A stretch of DNA of 64,000 nucleotides, taken from Urbifossiella limnaea (GTDB lineage: Bacteria > Planctomycetota > Planctomycetia > Gemmatales > Gemmataceae). The stretch lies in the NCBI RefSeq assembly GCF_007747215.1, contig NZ_CP036273.1:62001-126000 (forward strand), in the 5' to 3' direction. A program made the translations under genes and the position numbers. This document shows positions 28,140 through 56,851 of this stretch, piece after piece; positions within the stretch are counted from its first letter, which is position 1, and each line of letters starts with the position of its first letter. The notes under the pieces are model-generated. The model did not search any database, was not told the origin of the DNA, and saw only the letters and a list, made by a program, of their open reading frames with translations.

Positions 28140-29735
28140 TTGTCCCGATTCCTGGCCATCGACCTCGACGCCCAGGGCGTGTTCGTCGCCGCCGCCACCG
28201 TGAAGGGGGCCGCGACGCGCCCCGAGCAGGCGCTCGCGTGGGTGCCCGGCGCCGACCACGGCCCGCCGCCGCTCTCCGCGGACACCGCCAAGGCGCTCGG
28301 CGAGGGGCTCCGCGAGCGGCTCCGGGCCGCCGGCATCGCCCCCGCCCCGGCGCTGGTGAGCGTCGGCCGCGACCGCGTCATCTTCCGCGAGGTGACGTTC
28401 CCGCCCGTGCCGCTCAGTGAGGAACCGGCCGTCGTCCGCTTCCAGGTGCTGAAGGAGCTGCCGGACAACCCCGAGGACCTGGTCCTCGACTACGCCCCGC
28501 TGCCGGACACGGCCGACGGCCAGCGCCGCGCCACCGTCGTCGTCATCCGCAAGGACATTTTCGTCGCCGTGCAGGCGATGTGCGCCGCCGCCGGGCTGCG
28601 GCTCGCCGCCGTCACCCCGCGGCCGTTCGCCGTCGCCGCCGGGCTCGCCGCTGCGGTTGCCAACGGCGAGGCCGACCGGCCGCCGGACGGGACCGACGCC
28701 GCGGTCGCCACGCTCGGGCCGGGCGGCGGCGAGTTCACCGTGGTGCGCGGCTCGGCCGTGGCGTTCACCCGCACGGTCGCGGCGCAGGTGGTGGTCAACG
28801 ACGCGCTGCTGGTCGCCGAGTTGAAGCGGAACGTGGCCGTGAACCCGGGGCCGACGCCGGTCGGCGTGCTGTACGTGGCCGAGCCGGAGGGCCGCGTCGG
28901 CGGGTGGGGCGCCCGCCTGCGGCGCGCCGGGTACACCGGCGTCGTCAAGTCGTTCGACCCGCTCGTGAACGCCCCGGCGACGGTGCCCGACGAGCTCCGC
29001 GGCCGGTTCGCCGCCGCCGCCGGCCTGCTCGCCGCGAAGGCCGCCGGCGCGGTGCCGATCAACTTCGCCGCCCCGCGCCAGCCGCGGGCCGTGGCCGACC
29101 CGAAGAAGAAGCTGATGCTGATCGCCGGCGTCGCCGCGGGGCTGCTGCTCGTGGTCGGCACCGCGGTCGGGTACCTGATCGTGGACTCGGCCGACTCCCG
29201 GCTGGCGCTGCTGAACGAGGAGAAGGCCGACCTGGAGAAGCAGCTGGAGGACCTCAAGCCGGACCGGGAGCGGCTGAAGGCCGCCGACCAGTGGCGGACC
29301 CGCGAGGTGAACTACCTCGACGAGCTGTACGACCTGTCGGACCGGATGGCGGCCGACGACAAGCTGCGGGTGACGAAGGTGGAGGCCGTGGCCCAGCGGA
29401 TCGAGAAGGGCGGCAAGCAGGACGCGCAGGCGACGCTGAAGCTGACCGTCGGCGTGAAGGCGCCGGAGGCGGCGTCGGCGCTGCTGTCGGCGTTCGAGGC
29501 GGACAACCGGGCGGGGAACAAGTTCTACCTCGGGTCGAAGAAGCTCGGCGGCGCCCTGACGACCGGCGAGACGGCGTACAAGCAGTCGTTCACGCTGGAG
29601 ACGAAGGTGAACCACCGCGACCCGAAGGACTACACGCGGCTGCCGGCGTTCACCCCGCCGCCGCGCCGCGGCGCGTACGGCACCGCGGCCCCGCCGACCG
29701 CCGCGGCCCCGCCGACCGAAGACGAGTTGCCGTGA
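28140..29735 (+). CDS. gspL: GspL/PilM-PilN-like assembly protein
   Basis: The 531-residue protein appears to start at TTG 28140. Residues 1-310 have the actin-like PilM/GspL cytoplasmic fold: FLAIDLDAQGVFVAAA at the N-terminus, PALVSVGRDRVIFREVTFP.., LKELPDNPEDLVLDYAPL, and a second subdomain ending with TVVRGSAVAFTRTVAAQ. A single membrane helix follows (LMLIAGVAAGLLLVVGTAVGYLIV), then a coiled coil (LLNEEKADLEKQLEDLKPDRERLK) and a PilN/ferredoxin-like periplasmic region. So it looks like PilM fused to PilN, the GspL arrangement, and would link GspE to the inner membrane. The tail is proline-rich. A 5' TTG start is unusual and should be treated as provisional. Confidence 0.8.
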   Translation: MSRFLAIDLDAQGVFVAAATVKGAATRPEQALAWVPGADHGPPPLSADTAKALGEGLRERLRAAGIAPAPALVSVGRDRVIFREVTFPPVPLSEEPAVVRFQVLKELPDNPEDLVLDYAPLPDTADGQRRATVVVIRKDIFVAVQAMCAAAGLRLAAVTPRPFAVAAGLAAAVANGEADRPPDGTDAAVATLGPGGGEFTVVRGSAVAFTRTVAAQVVVNDALLVAELKRNVAVNPGPTPVGVLYVAEPEGRVGGWGARLRRAGYTGVVKSFDPLVNAPATVPDELRGRFAAAAGLLAAKAAGAVPINFAAPRQPRAVADPKKKLMLIAGVAAGLLLVVGTAVGYLIVDSADSRLALLNEEKADLEKQLEDLKPDRERLKAADQWRTREVNYLDELYDLSDRMAADDKLRVTKVEAVAQRIEKGGKQDAQATLKLTVGVKAPEAASALLSAFEADNRAGNKFYLGSKKLGGALTTGETAYKQSFTLETKVNHRDPKDYTRLPAFTPPPRRGAYGTAAPPTAAAPPTEDELP

Positions 29736-29740
29736 CCGGA

Positions 29741-29785
29741 ATGACGAATGACGAATGACGACCCGCGTCGTTCGTCATTCGTCAT
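29741..29785. repeat. palindromic element, 20-bp stem ('GAATGACGAATGACG' family, copy 1)
   Basis: Arms 29741-29760 and 29766-29785 pair with one mismatch; the arms are tandem ATGACGA words. It starts 5 nt after the gspL stop and ends 36 nt before the next gene. The same word family occurs in frame inside the kinase gene at 32223-32279. Confidence 0.88.
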
Positions 29786-29821
29786 GGGTCCTTCCCGCAC
29801 ACCACCGAGCCCGCCGCGCCG

Positions 29822-31585
29822 ATGAACGCCAGAGAACGCACCCTCGCCGCCGCCCTGATCGGGATGATCGTCCTCGCCGTCGGCGGGGCCGCCGCGTGGC
29901 TGTTCGTCCTCGTGCCGTACGCGCAGAAGACGCAGGCCGCTGACAAGCTCACCGTCGACGTCGAGAAGCTGGCCGCGGAGCTGAAGGCCGCCCGGAAGGA
30001 GGCGCCGCGCCTCACCGAGGCCCGCAAGCGGAGCCTCCCCGCCGACGCCTCGCTGGCCAAGCGCGAGTACGCCGAGATGCTGGCCCGCGTGCTCCAGAAG
30101 GCCGGCGTCGCCCCCGGCTACCGCATCACCGAGAAGTCGCCCGACCCCGCCGGCACGCCGCTGCTGCCGGGCGCGGGGAAGAAGCTGGCGTACCAGAAGG
30201 TCAGCTACGAGGTGTCGTTCGAGCGGGCCGACATGTGGAACGTCAAGGACGTGCTCGAGGGCTACTACCGGCTCAACGTGTTGCAGCAGATCACCCACCT
30301 CGACATCAAGGTGGACCCCACGCCCACCCCCGCCGGCAAGGCGAAGGTGGCCGGCGACCGGCACGACCTGATCGTCAAGCTCGGCACCGAGGCCATCATC
30401 CTCGACAACGCCGAGAACCGCCGCACGCTCCTGCCGGTGCCCACGGCGTTCGCCGCCGTCGGCGGGTGGCTCGGGTACAACGGCGTCGCCCTCAGCCCCG
30501 AGGCCGGCCGCGGCATCACCCCGATGCAGCTGGCGCCGGTGCTGGCGACGAAGACCCGCGACTACAGCCTGCTGGTGCTGAAGGACCCGTTCCACGGCCC
30601 GCTGCCGCCGCCGCCGCCGATGTCGCTCGGCCGCATCGCCGACGTGGCCGTCAAGGTGGGCGAGAAGCTCGACCCGATCCGCGTGCCGGTGGTCGCCGAC
30701 GCCGACTACGTCGGCAAGGTGAGCCTGACGGCGACGGTGGAGGGCGGCCCGTTCAAGGGCACCGAGGTGAAGATCGACGACGCCCGCAAGACGCTGAAGC
30801 TGGAGCCGAAGGCCGGCGAGACGGGCACGGGCACGGTCACCGTGTACGCGAAGGCGGCGAACGGGCAGAAGGCCGAGCGGTCGTTCAAGGTGCGGGTCGA
30901 CGAGCCGCCGGCGGAGAAGGAGCCGACGCCGGTGGCGGCGAAGGAGGACATCGCCGCCGACATCGTGCTGATCGGCGTGTCGATCCGGTCGGACGGGACG
31001 GCGACGGCGTTCGTGCGGGACAAGTACAACCCGCTGACGTACGAGCTGGAGGCGTCGGCCCGGCGGGTGAAGGTGATCCAGTACGAGCACCTCGGCCAGC
31101 GGAAGAAGCAGAACAAGGCGTACCGCCCGGACGCGGAGAACGGGTTCGACATCGACGACGACGGCAACACCGGGACGAAGCGGAACTTCAAGGTGGTGTC
31201 GGTGGACGACGGCGGGCTGGTGGTGGAGGACCTGAAGGCGAACGAGGCGCCGAAGGCGGCGGACCCGAAGGCGGCGAAGGGCGGCCCGGTGAAGGGCGGC
31301 CCGCCGCTGCTGGTGAAGGCGCCGCCGCTGGTGAAGGCGCCGCCGGCCCCGGCGGACGGGCTGGCGGGCGCGGTGGGGTTCGCGTCGGTGGTGCGGCCGA
31401 AGGTGACGGGTCCGGTGCTGTACCGGTGGGCGCCGGGCCAGTCGCTGGCGAAGCTGACGCCGCTGTCGGCGGCGGAGGCGAAGCGGGTGCTGGCGCGGTC
31501 GGCGGCGACCGGCCCGGTGGGCGCCGCGGCGGTGTCGGCGCCGTCGTCGGACGACCCGATCGTGGCGCCGCCGAAGGGGAACTGA
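29822..31585 (+). CDS. large GspM/PilO-like membrane-anchored protein
   Basis: The 587-residue protein has one N-terminal membrane helix (ALIGMIVLAVGGAAAWLFVLVPY), a coiled coil (TVDVEKLAAELKAARKEAPRL) and a ferredoxin-like region (YQKVSYEVSFERADMWNVKDVLEGYYRLNVLQQITHLDIKV), the plan of GspM/PilO. These are normally under 250 residues; here another 350 residues follow, including Ig-like beta stretches (VGKVSLTATVEGGPFKGTEVKI) and lysine/proline repeats (GGPVKGGPPLLVKAPPLVKAPP). Position after the L protein supports the role of completing the inner-membrane platform. The extension may replace GspC-type contacts, but this is conjecture. No secretin gene follows. Confidence 0.72.
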   Translation: MNARERTLAAALIGMIVLAVGGAAAWLFVLVPYAQKTQAADKLTVDVEKLAAELKAARKEAPRLTEARKRSLPADASLAKREYAEMLARVLQKAGVAPGYRITEKSPDPAGTPLLPGAGKKLAYQKVSYEVSFERADMWNVKDVLEGYYRLNVLQQITHLDIKVDPTPTPAGKAKVAGDRHDLIVKLGTEAIILDNAENRRTLLPVPTAFAAVGGWLGYNGVALSPEAGRGITPMQLAPVLATKTRDYSLLVLKDPFHGPLPPPPPMSLGRIADVAVKVGEKLDPIRVPVVADADYVGKVSLTATVEGGPFKGTEVKIDDARKTLKLEPKAGETGTGTVTVYAKAANGQKAERSFKVRVDEPPAEKEPTPVAAKEDIAADIVLIGVSIRSDGTATAFVRDKYNPLTYELEASARRVKVIQYEHLGQRKKQNKAYRPDAENGFDIDDDGNTGTKRNFKVVSVDDGGLVVEDLKANEAPKAADPKAAKGGPVKGGPPLLVKAPPLVKAPPAPADGLAGAVGFASVVRPKVTGPVLYRWAPGQSLAKLTPLSAAEAKRVLARSAATGPVGAAAVSAPSSDDPIVAPPKGN

Positions 31586-31628: not shown

Positions 31629-34600
31629 ATGGCCGCGCCCGACCCCCTCGCCACCCGCGACCCCGACCCCGGCGCTACCGCCGCGCCCGACGACCCCCTC
31701 GCCACCCACACCCCCGACGCCGCCGCCACCGGCACCCCCGCCCCCGCCGGCGGGTACGTCCTCGGCGACGAGATCGCCCGCGGCGGCATCGGCGTCGTCT
31801 ACCGCGCCGCCGACACCGGCCTCGGCCGCGAGGTCGCCGTCAAGGTGCTCCAGGACCGGTTCGGTGCCGCGTCCGGCACCGCCCGCCGGTTCGCCGACGA
31901 GGCCCGCATCACCGGCCGGCTCAGCCACCCCGGCATCCCGCCCGTCCACGCCTTCGGCACCCTCCCCGACGGCCGGCCGTTCCTGGCCATGAAGCTCATC
32001 AAGGGCGACACCCTCGCCGAGCTGCTCGCCCGCCGCCCCGACCCCGCCGCCGAGCGCGGCCGGTTCGTCGCCGCGTTCGAGCAGGTGTGCCAGGCCGTCG
32101 GCTACGCCCACAGCCAGGGCGTCATCCACCGCGATCTGAAGCCGGCGAACGTGATGGTCGGGGCGTTCGGCGAGGTCCAGGTCATGGACTGGGGGCTCGC
32201 CCGCGACGGGACTGACGAAGGCCGAATGACGAATGACGAAGCCCCGACGCGCGAGTCGTCGTTCGTCGTTCGTCATTCGTCGTTGACCCAGGCCGGTGCC
32301 GTCATGGGCACGCCGGCGTTCATGCCGCCGGAGCAGGCGCGCGGCGACACCGACCGCATCGACGCCCGCAGCGACGTGTTCGGGCTCGGCGCCGTCCTGG
32401 CCGTCGTGCTCACCGGCCAGCCGCCGTTCGCCGGCCCCACCGCCGAGACCACGTGGGCGGCGGCCACCCGCGGCGAAGTGGCCGACTGCTTTGCCCGACT
32501 CGACCGGTGCGGCGCCGAGCCGGAACTGATCGGGCTGTGCCGGCGCTGCCTCAGCCCCGACCCGGCGGGGCGGCCGGCCGACGGCGGCGAGGTGGCGCGC
32601 GCCGTGGCCGGGCTGCGGCAGGCGGCCGACGACCGCGCCCGCCGGGCGGAACTCGAGCGCACCCGGGCCGAGGTGCGCGCCGCCGAGGAGCGGAAGCGGC
32701 GGCGGGCGCGGCGGCTGCTGGTGGCCGCCGGGCTGGCGATCGTCGCCGGGCTCGCGGCCGTGGCGTGGCGCGCGGAGCGCGCGGAGACCGCCCGCGCCGC
32801 CGAGCTTCAAGCCCGTCGGCTGACCACCGAGCGCGACGTACTCGCCGCGCTCAACGAGGCCGAGGCGCTCCGCGCCGAAGGGGCGCGGCAGGCCGACGAC
32901 CCCGCGCGCTGGGCGCTCACCCTCACCGCCGCCCGGTCCGCCCACAAGCGCGCCGCGGCGCTGCTGGCGGCCGGCGACCCGACCGACGAGCTGACCGCGG
33001 CGGTCGCCGCCGCCGCCGCCGGGCTCGACGCCGACGACCGCGACCGCGCCCTCCTCGCCGAGCTCGACCGGATCGCCGACGAGAACGACATCCGGTTCAT
33101 CATGCCGGTCACGATCACCGACCGCGTGTCGGTGCGGTACGCGGCCGCGTTCCGGGCCGCGGGGATCGACCCCGGCGCGGCCGAGCCGGGCGGCGTGGCG
33201 GCGTGGCTGAAGGGGCACCGGTTCCGCGACCGGCTGACCGCCGCGGTGCGGGCGTGGCGCAGCGCCGCCCCACTGGTGGAGCCCGGCTCGCCGCCGCCCG
33301 CCGGGGGCGCGGCCCCGCCGCGCCTGCGCGACCGACTCCGTGCCGTCCTCCTGTTGGCGACGGACGACCCGTTCACCCGCGAGTGGTGGGCGGCGGCCGA
33401 GCGGCCGGACGAACCGAAGCTGCGGGCGCTACTGACGCGCCCGGAGGTGGCGCGGATGTCGGCCCGGGAGCTGGGGGTGTTGGCCGAGGGGTTGGCGGAC
33501 GGGTCTGGTGGCACGATCCTGGCCGTTCAGGCCGAGCTCGCCCGGGTCGCCTACGAGCGTGCCCCGGGCGAGTTCTGGGCGCACATGCGGCTGGGGTTCC
33601 GCAGTTCCGAACCCGATGACCCGGAGATCATCCGCCACTTCACCGCCGCCGTCGCCGCCCGCCCCCGCAGCGTGGCCGCCCGGCTGGCGCTGGGGATGGC
33701 GCTCAAGGAGGCCCGGCCGGACAGCCCGGACGGCGGCCGCCTCGTCCGCTCGGCAGTCGAGCTCGACCCCGCGTCGCCGTGGCCACACATCCTCATCGGC
33801 ACGTCGGGCGCCTTCGCCGCGGACTACGACGAAACCGTCGCGGCCCTGCGCCGGGCCGTCCAGCTCGACGCCGACCTGGCGTTCTTCATGATCACCGTAC
33901 TGTACAGCGAAATGGTCGCCGGCAGCCGCGGAGTGAAGGCGCTGACCCCGGTCGAGCTGGCCCGGGCGTGCGACGAACTGATCGCCGCCCGGCCCGATCA
34001 CCCCGGCGGGTACGACTTCCGGGCGAAGGTGCGGGTGGCCGCCGGCGACAACCGCGGGGCGCTCGCCGACCTGCGGGCGTCGGCGGCGCGACCGAAATCC
34101 GGCTACGCGGGCCGGTCCCTCTCCCAGTTCCAGCACGTACAGCTCGAGCAGCTTGCCGGGTGGGAGGCGAAGCTACCGGCCGTCCTCCGCGGCGAGCTCC
34201 GGCCGGCGACCCCGGCGGAGTGGTTCCAGCTGGCCCGGTACTGCGCCACTTTCGAGCACCGCTACGCCCTCGCGGTCCGGTTCGCGACCGAGGCCGGGGC
34301 CGAGCGGCCGACGGTGGACGTGGTGCAGGCGGCCGGTTGGGCGGTGCAGGCGGGGTTCGGGCTCGGGGCCGACGGGCCGGGGCTGTCGGTCGAGGAGCGG
34401 GCTCGGCTGCGGCGGCAGGCGCTGGACGTGCTCCGAACGGCGCGGACGAAGGGCGGCCCGATCGCGACTCTCATCGGCCCGGTGGCCCGCACCACGCGAA
34501 CCCTGGCCCCGACCCGCGACCCGGTGGCGCTGGCCGCGTTGCCCGCCGACGAGCGCGAGGGGTGGGTCCGCTTCTGGGCCGAGCTGGCGGCGTCACCGCC

Positions 34601-34643
34601 TCCTCCGCCGCCGGCCCCGCCGCCGCGCGAGGTGAAGCGGTAG
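31629..34643 (+). CDS. receptor-type serine/threonine protein kinase with TPR-like extracytoplasmic region
   Basis: The 1004-residue protein is a complete Hanks kinase: glycine loop ARGGIGVVYRA (50-60), lysine 72 in VAVKVL, HRDLKPANVMV (167-177, aspartate 169) and a DWG variant of DFG (187-189). Between DWG and the GTPAFMPPEQ motif is an insertion of about 24 residues (196-219, ending RHSSLTQAG) coded by a palindromic element. Cytoplasmic regulation of envelope functions is likely. A basic region and membrane helix (RRLLVAAGLAIVAGLAAVAWRA, near 358-378) follow, then about 600 residues with TPR-like helices (ALGMALKEARPDSPDGGRLVRSAVEL, DYDETVAALRRAVQLDADLAFF). It lies 43 bp downstream of the GspM-like gene on the same strand, but a functional link is unproven. 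Confidence 0.9.
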   Translation: MAAPDPLATRDPDPGATAAPDDPLATHTPDAAATGTPAPAGGYVLGDEIARGGIGVVYRAADTGLGREVAVKVLQDRFGAASGTARRFADEARITGRLSHPGIPPVHAFGTLPDGRPFLAMKLIKGDTLAELLARRPDPAAERGRFVAAFEQVCQAVGYAHSQGVIHRDLKPANVMVGAFGEVQVMDWGLARDGTDEGRMTNDEAPTRESSFVVRHSSLTQAGAVMGTPAFMPPEQARGDTDRIDARSDVFGLGAVLAVVLTGQPPFAGPTAETTWAAATRGEVADCFARLDRCGAEPELIGLCRRCLSPDPAGRPADGGEVARAVAGLRQAADDRARRAELERTRAEVRAAEERKRRRARRLLVAAGLAIVAGLAAVAWRAERAETARAAELQARRLTTERDVLAALNEAEALRAEGARQADDPARWALTLTAARSAHKRAAALLAAGDPTDELTAAVAAAAAGLDADDRDRALLAELDRIADENDIRFIMPVTITDRVSVRYAAAFRAAGIDPGAAEPGGVAAWLKGHRFRDRLTAAVRAWRSAAPLVEPGSPPPAGGAAPPRLRDRLRAVLLLATDDPFTREWWAAAERPDEPKLRALLTRPEVARMSARELGVLAEGLADGSGGTILAVQAELARVAYERAPGEFWAHMRLGFRSSEPDDPEIIRHFTAAVAARPRSVAARLALGMALKEARPDSPDGGRLVRSAVELDPASPWPHILIGTSGAFAADYDETVAALRRAVQLDADLAFFMITVLYSEMVAGSRGVKALTPVELARACDELIAARPDHPGGYDFRAKVRVAAGDNRGALADLRASAARPKSGYAGRSLSQFQHVQLEQLAGWEAKLPAVLRGELRPATPAEWFQLARYCATFEHRYALAVRFATEAGAERPTVDVVQAAGWAVQAGFGLGADGPGLSVEERARLRRQALDVLRTARTKGGPIATLIGPVARTTRTLAPTRDPVALAALPADEREGWVRFWAELAASPPPPPPAPPPREVKR
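32223..32279. repeat. palindromic element inside a kinase gene, 18-bp stem ('GAATGACGAA' family, copy 2)
   Basis: Arms 32223-32240 and 32262-32279 pair with one mismatch. Words are those of the element at 29741. Here it is in frame within the kinase gene and encodes roughly GRMTNDEAPTRESSFVVRHS between the DWG and GTP motifs. Confidence 0.85.
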
Positions 34644-40060: not shown

Positions 40061-40140
40061 GAGTGCGGAGTGCGGAGTGCGGAGTGCGGAGTCGAAGACA
40101 GCAGTTCTTCACGCCGCACGCCGCACGCCGCACGCCGAAC
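40061..40140. repeat. tandem-word imperfect palindrome ('GTGCGGA' family)
   Basis: The left arm (40061-40097) is about five copies of a 7-mer GTGCGGA; the right arm (40109-40143) is four copies of CACGCCG. Arms pair except for one regular mismatch per 7-mer (A facing a G). It separates dnaG from rpoD and ends 18 nt before the rpoD ATG. Confidence 0.82.
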
Positions 40141-56404: not shown

Positions 56405-56851
56405 TCAGTCCCACACGTACTGCTCGTCCCATTCCACGTCGTGCCGTCGGAGCAGCCCGCGGAACTCGTCCTGAAACGACCGCCCTTGGTGGTGCTCCTC
56501 CTGATTCTCGATGTACACCCGGACCGCCTCGACGGTTGACGGGCTGACCGAGAACGCCCCGTACCCGCTCTGCCAGTAGAAGTCCGGGCCGACGTGCTGC
56601 TTGGCCCACTTCGACGACTCCTTCTTCACCTCCTCGACCACCTTGCTGACGCTGACCGTCTTGGCGAGTACGAACAGGAGGTGGACGTGGTCCGGCATCC
56701 CGCCGACGCGGACCGGCGGGCAGTCGAGCGCGGCGAGGGCGCCGCCGAGGTAGTCGAACACGCGGCCGCGGTGGGCGGGGGTGATGCGCGGCTCGCGGTT
56801 CTTGGTGCTGAAGACGAGGTGGACCAGCACCCGCGACAGGGATTGCGGCAC
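56405..56851 (-). CDS. IS200/IS605-type (RAYT-like) single-domain transposase
   Basis: 148 residues. The HUH nuclease core is visible: VHLVFSTKNREPRI at the start, GMPDHVHLLFVL (HUH as HVH), and the catalytic tyrosine region VRVYIENQEEHHQG. KWAKQHVGPDFYWQSGYGAFSVSPSTV is typical of this Y1 group. Such enzymes cut and join single-stranded DNA at palindromes; the TnpA-REP (RAYT) branch acts on chromosomal palindromic repeats. No accompanying tnpB, and no clear left/right ends, were identified. Immediately on its 5' side lies a copy of the large composite palindrome. It may be a domesticated copy. Confidence 0.9.
   Translation of the reverse strand: MPQSLSRVLVHLVFSTKNREPRITPAHRGRVFDYLGGALAALDCPPVRVGGMPDHVHLLFVLAKTVSVSKVVEEVKKESSKWAKQHVGPDFYWQSGYGAFSVSPSTVEAVRVYIENQEEHHQGRSFQDEFRGLLRRHDVEWDEQYVWD

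What the first reader, a model, noticed from the sequence alone, without database searches (positions are those of the whole stretch)
32190..32300. Palindromic element inserted in frame in a kinase activation loop
Between the DWG and GTP-APE motifs, where phosphorylation switches the kinase on, about 24 extra residues are encoded by a GAATGACGAA-type palindrome, the same family as 29741 upstream. The frame is kept and all catalytic motifs are intact, so the element has become part of a signalling protein at its most sensitive site. The insert adds Ser, Thr and Arg residues.
Basis: partly seen in the sequence, partly recalled or inferred. Interest (0 to 1): 0.72.

Follow-up and report, generated by a model that had tools for sequence, protein, structure and literature searches.

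The report
Palindromic repeat inside kinase activation loop
A short palindromic DNA repeat that is scattered through this bacterium's genome has become part of a protein kinase, in frame, but it fills a stretch of the activation loop that is long and variable in all related kinases, so it is probably a tolerated passenger and not a new switch.

Summary
The DNA observation is right. Window 32210-32285 is a copy of a dispersed palindrome built of heptamers, (GAATGAC)n-loop-(GTCATTC)n; 47 further arrays were collected from this 7.8-Mb Gemmataceae-type genome. It lies in frame in a 1004-aa Hanks-type Ser/Thr kinase and encodes 25 residues (T195-L219) between DWG and the invariant Thr220 of TQAG.

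The linker is longer only against PknB. The element fills the least conserved part of the segment and is predicted disordered.

Two things add interest. At least five other genes carry in-frame copies, and a second kinase of this genome has a different heptamer palindrome at the same place. The code explains the tolerance: (GTCATTC)n reads VIRHSSF in all three frames; (GAATGAC)n has one TGA per 21 nt, changed to GGC in the kinase copy and in another gene's copy. It works like Rickettsia RPEs and intragenic REPs, in a new lineage and repeat family.

The parts
31629..34643 (+). 1004-aa Hanks-type serine/threonine kinase gene, host of the element
   Evidence: Pfam PF00069 E 8e-34; PknB structures E about 1e-40; full-length orthologues in Gemmata-like genomes, about 48% identical
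32187..32195 (+). DWG (DFG-equivalent) motif
32210..32285 (+). Heptamer palindrome element, encodes T195-L219 (TDEGRMTNDEAPTRESSFVVRHSSL); stem arms 32214-32239 and 32256-32281, loop 32240-32255
32286..32288 (+). Codon of Thr220, invariant in 50 aligned kinases, probable activation-loop phosphosite by alignment with PknB
   Evidence: phosphorylation itself is from general knowledge of PknB
32307..32333 (+). GTPAFMPPE (P+1 loop and APE-equivalent)
29739..29794 (.). Second copy of the element in the window, intergenic, between a GspL-like gene (28140-29735) and a GspM-like gene (29822-31585)
   Evidence: stem 19/20, loop 5; gene names are weak NCBIfam matches below cut-off

Best explanation
A dispersed heptamer palindrome, (GAATGAC)n-loop-(GTCATTC)n, inserted into, or came to replace, the variable linker of the activation segment of a planctomycete Ser/Thr kinase and was kept because the reading frame survived. 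Shown: family membership, in-frame position, variability of the linker in relatives, intact motifs, predicted disorder. The repeat is easy to tolerate as coding DNA: because 7 and 3 are coprime, (GTCATTC)n encodes the same stop-free heptapeptide VIRHSSF in every frame, and (GAATGAC)n encodes E-stop-RMTND with one TGA per 21 nt, which in this copy reads GGC. Inferred: the segment is a flexible, largely neutral spacer, and activation still works through the invariant Thr220 outside it.
For: Family. Frame and codon signal on both sides. Linker length and variability. Invariant residues border the element on both sides. Disorder over domain residues 156-184 (protein 196-224). Other in-frame copies in linkers or loops: CusA-like RND pump (two single arms), NMO/ketoacyl-synthase protein, LarC-like protein, multi-TM spermidine-synthase-type protein, and a GT2 gene 5' end. 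TGA replaced by GGC in the same frame in both the kinase copy and L058.
Against: No empty-site allele from a close strain was available; the nearest full-length orthologues are only about 48% identical, so insertion and stepwise replacement cannot be told apart. No transposase, target duplication or present mobility was shown. No expression or activity data.
Confidence: 0.8

Rival explanations
1. Domesticated insert: the element-coded Ser, Thr and Arg residues were recruited as an added phosphorylation or docking segment that changes how the kinase is switched on.
For: The insert carries T195, T201, T207, S210, S211, S217 and S218 and lies directly before the invariant Thr220.
Against: Linker sequence and length are not conserved in relatives; predicted disordered; similar copies sit in linkers of unrelated proteins, as expected from tolerance.
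Confidence: 0.1
2. The hairpin acts at nucleic-acid level inside the gene (mRNA stem-loop or DNA cruciform that tunes expression), and the peptide is a by-product.
For: The stretch still folds better than nearly all shuffles; intergenic copies have near-perfect arms and, where genes lie on both sides, seven are convergent and none divergent.
Against: The kinase copy has one of the worst-paired stems among the full palindromes (85%, against 95-100% for most); two of the three A-to-G changes of its right arm are silent but weaken pairing.
Confidence: 0.06
3. Chance resemblance: a GC-rich, low-complexity linker that merely looks like the element.
For: Orthologues also have HSDLTQAG at the right edge, so a few residues of the right arm could be ancestral.
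Against: Best genomic match E 3.7e-14; 134 against 0 control hits for the core 15-mer, one of which is this place; inverted-repeat score above all 60 shuffles and highest of 109 loops.
Confidence: 0.02

Closest known systems
Rickettsia palindromic elements (RPE; Ogata et al. 2000 and 2002, as described in PMC10969869)
   Same: Dispersed palindromes found in frame inside unrelated protein genes, adding a peptide at tolerant places.
   Different: RPEs are about 150 bp and not heptamer arrays, and nearly half of the first set lay in genes. Here most copies look intergenic, the unit is a 7-mer, and the host is a planctomycete.
Intragenic REPs of the GTAG and CGTC superfamilies (PMC3733652), reported also from the PVC superphylum
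   Same: Short hairpins, mostly intergenic, some of them decorating proteins in frame (20-30 residues).
   Different: REPs are 20-40 bp with an unpaired GTAG or CGTC tag; GTAG ones go with RAYT transposases. The copies here are heptamer arrays with arms up to 41 bp and show no such tag.
Heptameric tandem repeats (STRR of cyanobacteria; heptamer satellites in PMC6749651)
   Same: 7-nt repeat unit in short arrays at many places.
   Different: Here most arrays are paired with an inverted array to make a hairpin. STRR is recalled from memory and was not tested.

Membership tests
RPE-like intragenic palindromic element | Dispersed palindromic repeat present in frame in several unrelated genes | tested here: met
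   Kinase, L058, L048 (twice), L062, L063, and the 5' end of a gene in L059; L048, L062 and L063 copies are single arms
RPE-like intragenic palindromic element | Sequence homology to a described RPE family | not tested
   No RPE sequences were fetched; no Rfam family matched the window
RPE-like intragenic palindromic element | Insert absent from orthologues of the same gene | tested here: inconclusive
   Orthologues lack the palindrome but have an unrelated linker of 44 aa
GTAG/CGTC REP | 20-40 bp stem-loop with one unpaired GTAG or CGTC tag | tested here: not met
   Copies read: heptamer arms, no constant unpaired tag; CGTC occurs only as part of the heptamer register
GTAG REP / RAYT system | Y1 transposase gene flanked by the repeat | tested here: inconclusive
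   Three Y1_Tnp matches in the genome; only the flanks of the one in the window were read: other repeats, no heptamer
MITE of a known insertion sequence | Terminal inverted repeats shared with an autonomous element, target site duplication | tested here: inconclusive
   No constant direct repeat was seen at the ends of the copies, by eye only; no autonomous partner was identified
Hanks-type Ser/Thr kinase (host protein) | Gly-rich loop, catalytic Lys, HRDLKPxN, DxG, GT..PE | tested here: met

The most novel reading that the evidence does not exclude
The activation linker of this kinase class is a recurrent landing site. Two of the 15 MDWG kinases of this genome carry different heptamer palindromes (GAATGAC and GTGCGGA types) at the same place, both ending in codons for HS(S/A)LT, where element-free orthologues have HSDLT. 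Short pre-existing sequence such as CAYTC may seed palindromes there, so that repeat DNA repeatedly re-makes the regulatory linker of signalling kinases.
Probability: 0.15. Interest if true: 0.65.

Novelty: new variant of a known kind. Interest (0 to 1): 0.4.

Why it matters
It shows in Planctomycetota what is known mainly from Rickettsia: palindromic repeat DNA that became part of proteins. It also gives a simple reason why a heptamer repeat suits this: one arm encodes the same stop-free heptapeptide in all three frames. The kinase case is a testable example of how far an activation linker can change without loss of function.

Tried and rejected
Rfam gave nothing. The plasmid collection gave no match. 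No full-length orthologue of the kinase was found in the same genus, only in Gemmata-like genomes, so no empty site could be shown at DNA level. None of 101 other genomes of the order has a GTCRTTC arm before GTPA[FY]M or a TCCGCAYTC arm there. The Y1 transposase in the window was considered as mobiliser and set aside for lack of heptamers beside it. A general enrichment of palindromes in kinase loops was rejected: only 2 of 109 loops stand out from shuffles, both in this genome. A literature search for palindromes in Gemmataceae found nothing on this repeat. One paper search failed on a disallowed character, and Ogata et al. 2002 is not held.

Full report
What is there. The window is 62001-126000 of a 7.80-Mb single-contig genome whose relatives are Gemmataceae planctomycetes. 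ORF 31629-34643 encodes a 1004-aa Hanks-type Ser/Thr kinase whose closest solved relatives are PknB kinases. Between DWG (32187-32195) and GTPAFMPPE (32307-32333) lies a stretch, 32210-32285, of opposed heptamer arrays: GACTGAC GAAGGCC GAATGAC GAATGAC GAAG ... GTCGTTC GTCGTTC GTCATTC GTCGTTG. Its best stem has 22 of 26 pairs around a 16-nt loop.

It is a family member, not chance. The 111-nt stretch matches many places of the genome, best E 3.7e-14. The 15-mer AATGACGAATGACGA occurs 134 times against 0 for the reversed control. I collected 48 arrays, the two in the window included. Most are hairpins with well-paired arms; some are single arms; some have a second palindrome (GACCCACCAATGAC[C/G]AAGGAAG) nested inside. 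Within the family the exact 15-mer is patchy: 13 of 95 genomes, and only this genome and G084 hold more than 100 hits (134 and 148). In G084 it belongs to a longer relative of about 135 bp.

Is it an insert? Within its own class the DWG-to-GT linker has a median of 44 aa (range 23-79, 109 distinct loops, 85% of them at least 37 aa), and here it is 37. The full-length orthologues in three Gemmata-like genomes have 44 aa of unrelated sequence there, and the closest kinases of the same genome have 43-44. The DNA identity of the element stands. So the old linker was either replaced by the element or shortened around it; the data do not decide which.

Where it sits. In 50 aligned kinases the residues D, W, G and the A two further on are invariant, then nothing until Thr180 of the domain (Thr220 of the protein), Gly183, Gly187 and Thr188. 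The element fills that gap (residues 195-219) and ends directly before the codon of the invariant Thr, which aligns with the first Thr of SVTQT in PknB (that this Thr is phosphorylated in PknB is general knowledge, not tested here). AlphaFold2 on the 50-sequence alignment gives a mean pLDDT of 85.6, with the only segment below 50 at domain residues 156-184, that is the element plus a few residues.

Why the frame survives. Seven and three are coprime, so a heptamer array reads the same heptapeptide in all three frames: (GTCATTC)n gives VIRHSSF without stops, (GAATGAC)n gives E-stop-RMTND with one TGA per 21 nt (follows from the genetic code). In the kinase copy the heptamer that would place TGA in frame is GAAGGCC (GAA GGC), and the copy in L058 has the same change in the same frame (EGRMTN). 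Of seven differences from the consensus heptamers in the kinase copy, six raise G+C, and two of the three A-to-G changes in the right arm are silent (read). This fits selection on the coding sequence and not on the hairpin, but the numbers are small.

Other genes. In-frame copies with the same codon frame on both sides lie in a CusA-like RND pump (two single arms, ASFVIRHSSFG and SSFVSRQSSFR; the second falls in a gap of the alignment to ZneA), between the NMO and ketoacyl-synthase domains of a polyketide-type protein (SSFVIRHS), in a LarC-like nickel insertion protein (RRMTKDE, in a variable linker by alignment to LarC), and in a multi-TM protein related to fused MFS/spermidine synthases. A family-2 glycosyltransferase gene has a copy at its 5' end. 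Most other copies look intergenic by codon signal. Where both sides are coding, seven lie between convergent genes and none between divergent ones, which fits 3'-end hairpins. Frame-breaking intragenic copies were not excluded.

A second kinase. All 15 MDWG kinases found in the genome were read. One, at 6217071 (L087, L223), has another heptamer palindrome, GTGCGGAGTGCGG...CGCACTCCGCAC, in the same linker (inverted-repeat score above all 60 shuffles; lag-7 identity 0.50). Related GAGTGCGG arrays occur at a few other places, one of them in this window. Both right arms end in codons for HS(S/A)LT, where the element-free orthologues have HSDLT. Whether existing CAYTC-like sequence seeds palindromes here is a guess that could be tested. 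No other genome of the order shows either arm type at this place in an exact pattern search.

Comparison with what is known. In-frame palindromic elements are known from Rickettsia (RPE) and as intragenic REPs in several phyla (PMC10969869; PMC3733652). The present family works like them, but it lacks the REP tags and no transposase could be tied to it. I file it as a new variant of a known kind.

Verdict. The element and its in-frame coding use are real; the place is a tolerant one; a regulatory meaning is unproven and unlikely. Interest 0.4.

Noticed in passing
genome coordinates 2.1-5.5 Mb (G000:C1): Only 5 of 48 collected heptamer arrays lie in this 3.4-Mb stretch (about 21 expected, binomial p 6e-7), so the family clusters in the other part of the chromosome. 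The limits were chosen after looking, and the place of the origin was not checked.
   Followed up: partly
L041, L043, L044, L054, L079 and about 35 other genome places: A second palindromic family, GACCCACCAATGAC(C/G)AAGGAAG with an inverted partner (60 half-site hits against 1 for the control), sometimes nested between GAATGAC arms.
   Followed up: partly
window 40061-40140: Intergenic array of GAGTGCG heptamers followed by GCCGCAC-type repeats, related to the palindrome in the second kinase.
   Followed up: partly
window 56501-56836 (-): Y1 transposase gene (IS200/IS605 type, RAYT-like) flanked by GGCCTGAAGGCC-like and CCCAGGGC..GCCCTGGG repeats, not by heptamers.
   Followed up: partly
L056:1998-2033 and L056:2284-2319: Single heptamer arrays inside a cluster of 17 tRNA genes, in the gaps between tRNA-Gly(CCC) and tRNA-Gly(GCC) and between tRNA-Thr(GGT) and tRNA-Leu(TAA).
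   Followed up: partly
L052:2029-2941 and L047:1972-2512: Opposed single arms bracket about 0.9 kb and 0.5 kb, as if the palindrome had cargo in its loop.
   Followed up: no
L059:1973-2079: The 5' end of a family-2 glycosyltransferase gene reads through a heptamer palindrome; ATG codons within GAATGAC could serve as its start.
   Followed up: no
L228-L247 (genome G084): A longer relative of the element, about 135 bp, GAATGACGAATGACGAAGCCCGAATGACGAATCAATGACC... with variable centre, is frequent in another genus of the family.
   Followed up: partly
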